A stretch of DNA of 7,281 nt from assembly GCA_937864935.1 (NCBI GenBank), contig CALMDN010000314.1, positions 1-7,281 on the forward strand. Direction: 5' to 3'. The notes beneath the pieces were generated by a model, which saw nothing but the letters and a program-made list of their open reading frames with translations, was not told the origin of the DNA and did not search any database. Each line of letters opens with the position of its first letter. Position 1 is the first letter of the stretch. This DNA comes from an uncultured Bacteroidales bacterium. GTDB taxonomy: Bacteria; Bacteroidota; Bacteroidia; Bacteroidales; Lentimicrobiaceae. The position numbers were made by a program, and so were the translations under genes. Below, one piece after another: positions 666 through 3,303 of the stretch.

Positions 666-715
666 CTGAGTTGGTCCGCGTCTTATTTTCCTGAGTTGGT
701 CCGCGTCTTATTTTC
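666..715. repeat. 25-bp exact tandem duplication
   Basis: The 25 bases at 666-690, beginning CTGAGTTGGTCCGCG and ending TTATTTTC, are repeated exactly at 691-715. The second copy is also the left part of the first hairpin unit described next. The first copy is therefore a half-hairpin that lacks its right arm, as expected from slippage or partial duplication. Confidence 0.9.
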
Positions 716-780
716 TGACGCGGACTTCCACAACTCAACTGGAACATGAAAATTCAACGGATATTTTGGGGTCCGCAATC
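694..780. repeat. Hairpin repeat unit, copy 1
   Basis: An 87-bp unit. It opens with a perfect 9-bp inverted repeat, GTCCGCGTC (699-707) and GACGCGGAC (717-725), around the loop TTATTTTCT. In this copy an outer pair, GAGTTG (693-698) and CAACTC (731-736), extends the stem after a 5-base bulge. The unit ends with GTCCGCAATC (771-780), which leads into a heptamer array. It matches copy 2 (808-894) at 76 of 87 positions, and the first 37 bases are identical. Confidence 0.9.
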
Positions 781-802
781 CGAAATCCGAAATCCGAAAT
801 CC
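777..802. repeat. AATCCGA heptamer array 1
   Basis: Three exact tandem AATCCGA units (777-783, 784-790, 791-797) plus AATCC. They lie between the two hairpin units. The type is familiar from Bacteroidetes intergenic DNA, where it produces spurious translations such as ISDFGFRISDFG. Confidence 0.85.
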
Positions 803-807
803 TCCAT

Positions 808-894
808 AGTTGGTCCGCGTCTTATTTTCTGACGCGGACTTCCATAGTTCTGCTTGAACAGGAAAATCCACCGGATATATGGGGGTCCGCAATC
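808..894. repeat. Hairpin repeat unit, copy 2
   Basis: The second copy of the 87-bp unit starts exactly 114 bp after copy 1. The inverted repeat GTCCGCGTC (813-821) and GACGCGGAC (831-839) with the same 9-base loop is fully conserved, while the linker carries the 11 differences. The hairpin is flanked by a 9-bp direct repeat, TCCATAGTT, at 803-811 and 841-849. Together with the heptamers, the two copies form a tandem pair of composite elements (hairpin, linker, heptamer array). Confidence 0.9.
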
Positions 895-939
895 TAAAAT
901 CCGATATCCGAAACCTGCAATCCGAAATCCGAAATGAAG
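891..939. repeat. AATCCGA heptamer array 2, running into the start codon
   Basis: Seven heptads in register: AATCTAA, AATCCGA, TATCCGA, AACCTGC, AATCCGA, AATCCGA, AATGAAG. Three are exact and the others have drifted. The last heptad contains the ATG (934-936) of the radical SAM gene, so the whole ribosome-binding region of that gene is repeat DNA with no Shine-Dalgarno motif. Confidence 0.8.
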
Positions 940-2811
940 AAGAAACATTTCACCATCCCCATCTTCGTGCCCGAGCTGGCCTGTCCCAACCGTTGCGTAT
1001 TCTGCAACCAGCACAGCATTTCGGGTTGCCGGAAGCAACCGGAGCCGGAGGAGGTGCGTGAGATTATCCTGAAGCACCTGAAAACCATCCCGGAAAAAGA
1101 TGCACACATCGAAATCGGGTTTTTCGGTGGCAGTTTCACCGGCATTGAACCGGAGTTGCAGGAAAAATATCTTGAGGTGGCGAAAGAATATTTAATTCCC
1201 GATCCCGGGTGGTCTCGACTCCGCTCGACCACCGGTAACAGGGAATCAAATCCCGGAATTACAGAGGAAGCCGGAACAAGGTGGTCGAGCGGAGCCGGGA
1301 CACGGTGGTCGAGCGGAGCCGAAACACGGTGGTCGAGCGGTGGTGGTCGAGCGGAGCCGAGACCAGCCGAGACCACCTTGTCCCGCAACCGCATCCACGG
1401 CATCCGCCTCAGCACCCGGCCCGATTACATCAGCGAGGCTGTGCTTACACGGCTGAAAAAGTACGGAGTGACCACCATTGAACTCGGGGCGCAATCGCTC
1501 GACGATGAAGTGCTCCGTGGGGCGGGTCGTGGACATACCGTTGAAGATGTGGTAAATGCCTCTGCGATGATCCGGGAGGCCGGGTTCAGCCTTGGCCTGC
1601 AGATGATGACCGGCTTACCGGGCGATACCCGGGAAAAATCGCGCTCTACGGCACGCCGAATCATTGAACTCGGAGCCGATTGCACGCGCATCTACCCTAC
1701 CCTGGTTATCAGGGGCACTGAACTGGAAAACAAGTGGAAATCGGGAATATATACCCCGCAGACCCTGGATGAAGCTGTGGAAACCGCTGCTGAGCTGCTC
1801 GATGTCTTCGATGAAGCAAACGTACGTGTTATCCGGGTTGGCCTGCATCCTTCCGAAAGCCTGCTCGATGGCAGTGAATTGCTGGCAGGCCCGTTTCATC
1901 CGTCCTTCAGGGCCCTGGTAGAAACATACCGCTGGAAAAAGAAACTTCAGCAACTGGTCGCCAGCGAAGGTAACAAAGAGTACATCCGCATTGAGGTCCC
2001 GGCAGACCAGCTGCCGTTTGCCATCGGACACGAATCATCGAACAAGCGCTGGTTGCAGCATCTTTTCAGCAAGGTTGAATTCATGACCACCAGCGGGAGT
2101 GAATCTTCAGAACCCCTGATTGTCTGCGATAAACGAATTCCCCTTCCGGCTAAAAATACCCTGAAAAAGCTGGGAGTCTGTCACTTTATCCGGACAGAAG
2201 ACCTGGTTTACAAATCCATTTCAGGACATCCCGATATCTTTCTCTGCCAATACGGCCGTCAGGTGGTGGTAGCCCCTGCCCTCTTACCCGCGCTGGAACC
2301 CGGCCTCATGGCTGCGGGATTCGAAGTGGTTCAGGGACAACAGAACCCGGGCAAAACCTATCCCGAAACGGCTCGGTACAATGCCGTGGTAACCCGTAAA
2401 TACCTTATTCATAACCTCCGGATTACCGATCAATCCATCCTCGATACCTTTTCCGACAGGGAACCGCTTCAGGTGAATCAGGGTTACACCAGATGCAACC
2501 TGCTGGAAATCAGTGACGACAGGTTTATCACCTCCGACAGAGGCATTGAAAAAGTGCTATCAGGCAAAGGAGCCTCGGTTCTGTTCGTTGACCCTGAGCC
2601 AGTGCGACTGAGGGGACAGAAATACGGGGTTTTCCCCGGCTGCTGCGGTGTTTACAGGCATGAACTGCTGGTAAACGGGAGTCTCCATTACCATCCGCAG
2701 TCGGCTGCAATCAGGGAATTTGTTCTCGCTTCCGGTTTAAGCATCCGTGAATTGTACAACGGCCCGCTTACCGATACCGGTGGATTGTTTGTTTTCGGGC
2801 GGGAAATCTGA
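934..2811 (+). CDS. Elp3-like radical SAM enzyme fused to a DUF6873-like domain
   Basis: A 625-residue cytoplasmic protein. Residues 1-395 match the short Elp3/COG1243-type radical SAM family that lacks the acetyltransferase domain. Cys17, Cys21 and Cys24 (CPNRCVFC) form the CX3CX2C iron-sulfur motif that cleaves S-adenosylmethionine; GGSFTG is at 65-70, GIRLSTRPDYI at 156-166, TTIELGAQSLDD at 180-191, QMMTGLPGD at 223-231 and RIYPTLVIRGT at 252-262. Residues 400-625 look like DUF6873, a predicted GME-fold domain, with SGHPDI (430-435), YLIHN (490-494), GYTRC (517-521), FITSDRGI (531-538), YGVFPGCCGV (564-573) and NGPLTDTGG (609-617). The substrate is unknown. The family is normally continuous where residues 91-150 stand here; those residues are repeat-derived (see 1208-1377). 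ATG 934 is the only start after the in-frame stop at 895-897, and it gives the usual family N-terminus KKKHFTIPIFVP. The stop lies 12 bp from the end of the convergent gene. Confidence 0.85.
   Translation: MKKKHFTIPIFVPELACPNRCVFCNQHSISGCRKQPEPEEVREIILKHLKTIPEKDAHIEIGFFGGSFTGIEPELQEKYLEVAKEYLIPDPGWSRLRSTTGNRESNPGITEEAGTRWSSGAGTRWSSGAETRWSSGGGRAEPRPAETTLSRNRIHGIRLSTRPDYISEAVLTRLKKYGVTTIELGAQSLDDEVLRGAGRGHTVEDVVNASAMIREAGFSLGLQMMTGLPGDTREKSRSTARRIIELGADCTRIYPTLVIRGTELENKWKSGIYTPQTLDEAVETAAELLDVFDEANVRVIRVGLHPSESLLDGSELLAGPFHPSFRALVETYRWKKKLQQLVASEGNKEYIRIEVPADQLPFAIGHESSNKRWLQHLFSKVEFMTTSGSESSEPLIVCDKRIPLPAKNTLKKLGVCHFIRTEDLVYKSISGHPDIFLCQYGRQVVVAPALLPALEPGLMAAGFEVVQGQQNPGKTYPETARYNAVVTRKYLIHNLRITDQSILDTFSDREPLQVNQGYTRCNLLEISDDRFITSDRGIEKVLSGKGASVLFVDPEPVRLRGQKYGVFPGCCGVYRHELLVNGSLHYHPQSAAIREFVLASGLSIRELYNGPLTDTGGLFVFGREI
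1208..1377. repeat. Palindromic and tandem GGTGGTCGAGCGGAG repeat block inside the radical SAM gene
   Basis: At the left edge (1208-1233) is a 26-bp element with inverted ends GGTGGTC and GACCACC; it is an exact reverse complement of the ideal repeat unit. Then come forward copies of GGTGGTCGAGCGGAGCCG at 1280-1297 and 1304-1321, a truncated one at 1328-1340, and a last one at 1342-1359 that continues to a closing GACCACC at 1371-1377. The first three copies have a strict 24-bp period, encoding the octapeptide TRWSSGA(G/E). Within the last copy AGCCGAGACC is duplicated in tandem (1355-1364, 1365-1374). No stop codon arises in the host gene frame. The same motif type (translating as VVERSRN) is one I recall as dispersed in Bacteroidetes genomes. 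Confidence 0.9.
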
Positions 2812-2823
2812 AAAATATCTGGT

Positions 2824-3303
2824 TTACCTGTTCAGAATTTTCACGATGGCCGCCAGCAACTCCGGTTGTTCGAGGTTGTTAAGAATTTCGGCCATTCCGG
2901 CTGCTTTTTCAGCCGGTTTTTTGTCGGAGGAAATCAGCTGGGCCAGGTCGCGCGACTGCTTCACGGTAATGAATTCGGCCAGTGCCTCCAGGGCTGGGTT
3001 GGCCGAAGGGTCGGGTTTTGGGGGCAGGCCGAACATCTCCAGCTCGGAGATGCAGGCTTCGAGTATCTCCCTCCCCATTTTACGGCAGACATCCATCTGG
3101 GTCATGCGGCCGGTTGCATCGCGCAGCGACCAGCTACTGAAATCAGGCTGAATCTGGCCGATCATCTCCACTTTACGTGAATTTTCCCCGAAAATGCGGC
3201 CCATCACCACAATGGCATTGGCTTTCCACGATTGAAGGTCAAAGGGTTTGTGATCGAGGCGGTCGATCAGTTCGCGGAGTACATCGGTCTCTTTCAGTGA
3301 CAT
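2824..3303 (-). CDS. Conserved-looking protein of unknown function
   Basis: A 159-residue soluble protein with no signal peptide or membrane segment. I do not recognise a named family with confidence. The N-terminal two thirds looks like a compact conserved domain: LIDRLDHKPFDLQSWKANAI (12-31), GRIFGENSRKVEMI (35-48), FSSWSLRDATG (55-65) and CRKMGREILEACISELEMFG (73-92). After a proline-rich hinge (LPPKPDPSANP, 93-103), the C-terminal 55 residues are predicted to be helical (EALAEFITVKQSRDLAQLI, then AEILNNLEQPELLAAIVKIL). The pattern W-x(8)-RIFGE-S resembles the helical N-terminal regions of some Bacteroidetes effector and defence proteins, but this is too weak for a function. The ATG at 3303 is the first in frame. 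The gene is divergent from dnaG, with about 150 bp between the two chosen starts, and convergent with the radical SAM gene. Confidence 0.75.
   Translation of the reverse strand: MSLKETDVLRELIDRLDHKPFDLQSWKANAIVVMGRIFGENSRKVEMIGQIQPDFSSWSLRDATGRMTQMDVCRKMGREILEACISELEMFGLPPKPDPSANPALEALAEFITVKQSRDLAQLISSDKKPAEKAAGMAEILNNLEQPELLAAIVKILNR

What the first reader, a model, noticed from the sequence alone, without database searches (positions are those of the whole stretch)
1208..1377. Palindromic repeat block inserted in frame into a radical SAM catalytic domain
The family runs directly from the helix after GGSFTG to GIRLSTRPDYI. Here about 60 residues of repeat-derived low-complexity sequence (three TRWSSG octads) sit between them. 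The block begins and ends with palindromic elements in opposite orientation, has a 24-bp (8-codon) period, introduces no stop codon and leaves the CX3CX2C, GGSFTG and downstream motifs intact. Dispersed intergenic-type repeats seldom land in conserved enzymes. This one either makes a tolerated surface loop between two barrel elements or has quietly inactivated the enzyme. The inverted copies could also fold the mRNA within the gene.
Basis: partly seen in the sequence, partly recalled or inferred. Interest (0 to 1): 0.72.

Follow-up and report, generated by a model that had tools for sequence, protein, structure and literature searches.

The report
Swappable palindrome loop inside an enzyme
In the bacterial genus Lentimicrobium, one conserved radical SAM enzyme carries at a fixed place a stretch of protein built in frame from scattered palindromic DNA repeats; relatives have 0 to 102 extra residues there with little regard to kinship, so the stretch is predicted to be a floppy surface loop that has likely been swapped between species together with the helix before it.

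Summary
Window 1208-1377 is a REP-type inverted dimer: a 26-nt palindrome, a 46-nt spacer, two 24-nt units in the other orientation and a 50-nt nested copy. It is read in frame inside an Elp3-like radical SAM/DUF6873 gene (934-2811) and adds 62 residues between helix a2 and strand b3.

It is not a one-off. Of 17 same-genus genomes in which the gene was found, 8 have extra sequence at this site; so do 32 of 82 aligned proteins (5-102 residues). Of the other 50, 49 keep the family's 25-residue spacing and one has one residue more. The flanks are under purifying selection (dN/dS 0.16 against the sister species), so inactivation is unlikely; the insert is predicted to be disordered.

Unexpected: presence/absence needs at least 15 changes on the gene tree, even between proteins about 98% identical elsewhere, and the preceding helix changes with it. 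That suggests exchange of helix plus insert as a cassette. Co-adaptation of the helix is the main rival; a synonymous-site test at larger distances did not support exchange.

In-frame REPs in proteins are known (Rickettsia RPEs, REP-decorated genes), so this is a new variant of a known kind.

The parts
934..2811 (+). Elp3-like radical SAM / Radical_SAM_C / DUF6873 gene, 625 aa
   Evidence: nearest solved folds are Elp3 chains
1144..1194 (+). codons 71-87, helix a2, which co-varies with presence of the insert
   Evidence: helix 73-84 in the model
1208..1233 (-). 26-nt palindromic repeat, inverted orientation, read as GWSRLRSTT
   Evidence: core identical to dispersed copies
1234..1279 (+). 46-nt spacer; same length and 30 of 46 sites the same in the orthologue of G009
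1280..1303 (+). 24-nt repeat unit 1, read as (T)RWSSGAG
1304..1327 (+). 24-nt repeat unit 2, read as (T)RWSSGAE
1328..1377 (+). 50-nt nested palindrome (one repeat in the loop of another), read RWSSGGGRAEPRPAETT
   Evidence: window 1327-1375 matches dispersed sites
1210..1362 (+). codons 93-143, predicted disordered loop
   Evidence: pLDDT under 50

Best explanation
The block is an in-frame REP-type palindrome dimer at a fixed site of an Elp3-like radical SAM enzyme in Lentimicrobium, predicted to form a disordered surface loop on a likely still-working enzyme, and it has likely been exchanged between species together with the helix before it. Steps. (1) Inferred: an inverted palindrome pair with a 46-nt spacer entered the a2-b3 turn early in the genus; the palindrome has no stop in any of its six frames, so entry could be harmless. 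(2) Shown: the insert now adds 5 to 102 residues; two close relatives differ by exactly 16 residues, two 24-nt units; in G013 the unit palindrome-spacer-palindrome is doubled; the window ends in a nested copy of the dispersed type. (3) Shown: presence is scattered over the gene tree, and the 15-17 residues before the insert co-vary with it while 18 other stretches tested do not. (4) Inferred: short recombination tracts between the conserved FGGSFTG and GIRLSTRPDYI codons carry helix plus loop in and out, which would also explain why insert-free copies have exactly 25 residues. (5) Inferred: the loop does little for catalysis, since a2-b3 turns of radical SAM barrels lie away from the iron-sulphur site (general knowledge, not measured here).
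For: Same site filled in 8 of 17 genomes and 32 of 82 rows. At least 15 changes of state on a 55-row tree built without helix and insert, 13 forced by well-supported branches. Helix change against near flanks: 7 unlike sister pairs median ratio 4.1, 10 like pairs 1.5, p 6e-4; with the helix read straight from the sequence p 1.5e-3; P0011/P0019 6 of 17 against 3 of 244, p 2e-6. Over a 50-row clade unlike state lowers helix identity by 0.12, 0 of 500 label shuffles as low; 18 other windows lie between -0.01 and 0.02 (shuffles ignore kinship). Insert resemblance follows the gene tree weakly: best insert match is the nearest gene in 6 of 29. P0001/P0004 differ by a 16-residue gap. dN/dS 0.16. Loop pLDDT under 50; insert-free P0019 has the same elements with a short turn there.
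Against: Synonymous-site test among 16 genomes: unlike state does not lower synonymous identity of the helix clearly (coefficient -0.035, 160 of 2000 shuffles as low, 13 of 34 control windows as low), and like-state insert pairs are hardly raised (0.59 against 0.57 in the N part). No DNA was available for the closest unlike pairs. P0025/P0059 differ in state without excess helix change (p 0.32). Insert resemblance does follow kinship to some degree (32 of 2000 permutations as low), and shared repeat units confound it. The changes concentrate at the end of the helix next to the insert, as co-adaptation would also give. Sources are metagenome assemblies.
Confidence: 0.5

Rival explanations
1. 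Co-adaptation without exchange: one old insertion, many independent exact losses (or gains), and selection that adjusts the end of helix a2 each time the loop comes or goes.
For: The co-varying residues lie mostly at positions 11, 12, 14 and 15 after FGGSFTG, next to the insert (28 of 32 A, 30 of 32 V, 30 of 32 E in insert-bearing rows); synonymous test negative; P0025 without insert keeps an insert-like helix.
Against: Needs at least 15 state changes with exact return to 25 residues in 49 of 50 rows under 5 extra; in P0011/P0019 six helix changes against 0 of 68 before and 3 of 176 after, including positions away from the insert.
Confidence: 0.32
2. Repeated fresh insertion: dispersed palindromes keep landing in this turn because it is the one tolerant site.
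For: The window's last 49 nt match dispersed copies at 94-98%; inverted dimers are the common arrangement elsewhere (26 of 60 neighbouring pairs).
Against: The 46-nt spacer is shared by distant orthologues (window, G009, G013) but not by 89 fetched stretches with dispersed copies; the same frames are used in most inserts; it does not explain the helix.
Confidence: 0.13
3. Decay or artefact: the insert marks a dying gene or an assembly error.
For: The gene was not found in G004 and G006; in G016 the frame is broken after the insert; the window's assembly has 589 contigs.
Against: dN/dS 0.16; open frames in six insert-bearing genomes; the same arrangement in independent records, P0007 (+86) on a 3.7-Mb contig; the G016 break lies outside the insert and similar inserts are open in P0045 and P0054.
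Confidence: 0.05

Closest known systems
Rickettsia palindromic elements (RPEs) in protein genes
   Same: Palindromic repeats, stop-free, in frame inside working genes; clusters encode 43-82 residues in R. conorii and Thauera (PMC3733652, section 15 read).
   Different: Other repeat sequence (no CGTC end), other phylum; here one gene, one site, many species, with scattered presence and a co-varying helix.
REP-decorated genes of the GTAG and CGTC REP super-families
   Same: Mostly intergenic, often inverted dimers, now and then in frame in genes; recB of two Xanthomonas species has REPs at about the same site (PMC3733652).
   Different: The present repeat lacks the GTAG/CGTC tag, and no copy lies within the about 1.5-kb flanks of 30 Y1_Tnp loci.
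Intragenic dimorphic or homeologous small variable segments (E. coli, S. aureus, S. pyogenes)
   Same: Short in-frame blocks that differ inside otherwise conserved genes; segment replacement and homeologous recombination proposed (PMC2884548, passages read).
   Different: Those are within species; here one alternative is a palindrome array and the scatter spans a genus.

Membership tests
REP (GTAG/CGTC super-families) | GTAG or CGTC tetranucleotide at one end | tested here: not met
   of 170 copies with 14-nt flanks, GTAG in 10, CTAC in 7, CGTC in 5, GACG in 18
REP (GTAG/CGTC super-families) | short palindrome, dispersed, mainly intergenic, often as inverted dimers | tested here: met
   13 of 19 genomes; by a codon-usage score 2 of 171 copies outside the gene look coding on both sides, one weakly; 26 of 60 close pairs are -+, 1 is +-
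REP (GTAG/CGTC super-families) | for GTAG repeats, association with a tyrosine transposase (RAYT) | tested here: inconclusive
   Y1_Tnp in 15 of 19 genomes, no repeat within the flanks of the 30 loci fetched; further Y1_Tnp matches not examined
RPE-like protein-coding palindrome | palindrome read in frame inside a gene kept by selection | tested here: met
   open frame, dN/dS 0.16 on flanks
RPE-like protein-coding palindrome | product translated and working with the insert | not testable with these tools
   needs proteomics or enzymology
Elp3 (TIGR01211) | score above the curated cut-off of 350 bits | tested here: not met
   128.9 bits; no acetyltransferase domain found by Pfam
radical SAM enzyme | CX3CX2C motif and Radical_SAM domain | tested here: met
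   C17, C21, C24 (sequence); PF04055 74.9 bits

The most novel reading that the evidence does not exclude
A palindromic repeat has become a travelling gene cassette: helix a2 plus a REP-built loop moves between Lentimicrobium species by short recombination tracts, so that one position of one enzyme is switched over and over between a tight turn and a disordered loop of up to about 100 residues, nearly independent of descent.
Probability: 0.45. Interest if true: 0.65.

Novelty: new variant of a known kind. Interest (0 to 1): 0.5.

Why it matters
It supplies many natural with/without pairs for the old question whether REP-type repeats inside proteins are tolerated junk or useful loops, and it shows a repeat-built protein segment whose presence is nearly unlinked from descent. 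If cassette exchange is right, a repeat spreads inside a conserved gene by recombination of its flanks and needs no transposase for that.

Tried and rejected
Transposase link: no repeat (up to 3 substitutions) in the 30 Y1_Tnp loci fetched. Rfam: nothing at gathering score in the window. Other coding hosts: 15 frames over dispersed copies had no Pfam match; a codon-usage score flagged one 368-aa frame in G007 (L187, same place as L157) and weakly a 102-aa frame (L201). That score is imperfect: it missed the gene itself in G011. Synonymous tests for exchange: not supportive. A DNA alignment of the block that crosses the spacer also hit a tandem array in G012 (C14, 68%); ungapped, the spacer matches there at 23 of 46, chance level (L161).

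Paper searches: palindromic element/in-frame/Rickettsia, RPE/WPE and coding palindromes (25), REP/Bacteroidetes/RAYT (26), Lentimicrobium/repeat/palindrom (27), REP in coding (70), intragenic palindromic repeats (71), RPE at same position (80), four 13-letter forms of the repeat (90, no paper). In the titles and abstract starts listed I saw nothing on this repeat or this gene; supplements were not searched.

Rows dropped: alignment A1 holds the window and 81 of the 120 homologues listed; 39 were left out by hand (near-duplicates, distant rows, fragments). Of the 39, P0067 has an insert of 24 and the fragment P0085 starts inside an insert; no other departs from 25. The careful tree used 55 of the 82 rows. 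The sister pairs were picked by hand from the trees (7 unlike, 10 like); P0035/P0043 are paired with weak support and P0015/P0018 too. The lists were capped, so the survey of dispersed copies is not complete.

Full report
What is there. The window is contig C314 of a 3.0-Mb, 72.5% complete assembly of 589 contigs; homologues with names are from Lentimicrobium. Gene 934-2811 encodes 625 aa with Radical_SAM, Radical_SAM_C and DUF6873. The nearest solved folds are Elp3 chains, but the TIGR01211 score is far under its cut-off. It lies between the end of a peptidase T gene (1-507) and a 159-aa frame without a Pfam match (2824-3303, minus), which is followed by dnaG.

Anatomy of the block. 1208-1233 is a 26-nt imperfect palindrome in inverted orientation; 1234-1279 a spacer; 1280-1303 and 1304-1327 two 24-nt units; 1328-1377 a 50-nt palindrome in which one repeat sits in the loop of another (the division is mine). 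The 26-nt palindrome has no stop in any of its six frames. The gene reads the inverted copy as GWSRLRSTT and the direct ones as RWSSGAG and RWSSGAE; the nested copy is read partly in another frame and comes back because its offsets of 14 and 10 nt add to 24.

Dispersed copies. With at most one mismatch the repeat occurs in 13 of 19 same-genus genomes, 164 copies by my addition (0 for the reversed control in all 19). Around listed copies I fetched 89 stretches outside the gene (L112-L151, L162-L210) with 171 copies at up to two mismatches. By a codon-usage score one 368-aa frame in G007 (L187) and, weakly, a 102-aa frame (L201) have coding-like sequence on both sides of a copy, besides the radical SAM gene itself; the score missed that gene in G011. 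Fifteen frames over copies, these two included, had no Pfam match. Of 60 neighbouring pairs within 150 nt, 26 are -+, 1 +-, 21 ++ and 12 --, and none is 24 nt apart. Used as a DNA query, the block matched across its spacer the same gene in G013 and G009, and at 68% a tandem array in G012, while its last 49 nt matched many dispersed sites, best at 98%. Ungapped, the spacer's best match in the 89 stretches is 27 of 46, against 28 for a shuffled spacer.

Relatives. The gene was found in 17 of 19 genomes (G004 and G006 gave only distant radical SAM hits). Eight carry extra sequence at this site (G000, G003, G005, G009, G011, G012, G013, G016); nine do not, G017 having one extra residue. G011's contig starts inside the insert; G016 has a frame break after the insert. 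Of 82 aligned rows 32 have 5-102 extra residues, 49 none and one has one. P0001 and P0004, 571 of 598 columns identical, differ there by a 16-residue gap, two octads. In G013 the unit of palindrome, 46-nt spacer and palindrome is doubled (read from the printed sequence).

Selection. Against G012 the flanks give dN 0.107, dS 0.65, ratio 0.16 over 554 codons (Nei-Gojobori); the parts give 0.066 (5-70), 0.161 (helix, 17 codons), 0.124 (155-330) and 0.197 (331-625). Spacer DNA of window and G009 agrees at 30 of 46 sites without gaps, more than third positions of the gene at 155-330 and 331-625 (0.40, 0.37) and about as at 5-87 (0.60).

Structure. AF2 with 82 rows gives mean pLDDT 87, residues 93-143 under 50, helix 73-84 before and strand 156-161 after. 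The insert-free P0019 (62 rows) has helix 71-86 and strand 92-97 with a short turn between. Where the turn lies relative to the cluster is general knowledge of radical SAM barrels, not measured here.

Scatter and cassette. On a careful tree without helix and insert columns (55 rows) the state needs at least 15 changes; 13 are forced by well-supported branches; 53 (insert) and 39 (no insert) of 500 shuffles are as low, so it is barely clustered. Unlike sister pairs show excess change in residues 71-87: P0011/P0019 6 of 17 against 0 of 68 and 3 of 176; P0033/P0053 7 of 17 against 1 of 30 and 6 of 176; P0005/P0032, P0006/P0020, P0030/P0031 and P0014/P0027 p 0.001 to 0.03; P0025/P0059 none (p 0.32). 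Ten like pairs have p 0.08 to 1. The contrast holds when the helix is read straight from the sequence, and 18 other windows do not show it. I read this as exchange of helix plus loop. Against that, the synonymous test among 16 genomes is not supportive, and insert resemblance follows the gene tree to some degree (Spearman -0.25, 32 of 2000 permutations as low; nearest gene is best match in 6 of 29). Co-adaptation stays open at about 0.3.

Known kinds. In-frame RPEs and REP-decorated proteins are described in PMC3733652 (passages, section 15), including clusters that encode 43-82 residues and two Xanthomonas recB genes with REPs at about the same site. Replaced intragenic segments are described in PMC2884548 (passages). 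The present repeat lacks the GTAG/CGTC tag. Hence a new variant of a known kind, not a new kind.

Noticed in passing
window 669-930: Upstream of the gene lies another set of repeats: GTCCGCGTC..GACGCGGAC palindromes (two full copies) and ATCCGAAATCC-type arrays. With up to 2 mismatches the palindrome occurs in 4 of 19 genomes, in G001 and G007 also near this gene.
   Followed up: partly
L211 (G001:C1:19300-36000): In G001 the upstream repeats and the first about 31 codons of the gene remain beside the peptidase T gene, while a full copy lies about 11 kb further on, with long frames between.
   Followed up: partly
L187 739-1842 (-), G007:C23: A 368-aa open frame with the repeat in frame near its start and coding-like codon use on both sides; perhaps a second decorated gene. 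No Pfam match.
   Followed up: partly
L019 (G005), P0008, P0034: Here the repeat has a second palindrome in its loop, read as SSLSDCD(K/R)QAGG: nested palindromes inside the same insert.
   Followed up: no
L030 (G018), P0126: Another length-variable stretch of the same enzyme lies before HIEVGFFGG, outside the insert-bearing clade.
   Followed up: no
P0124, P0125: Two homologues lack the N-terminal radical SAM part and start further down, perhaps broken genes.
   Followed up: no
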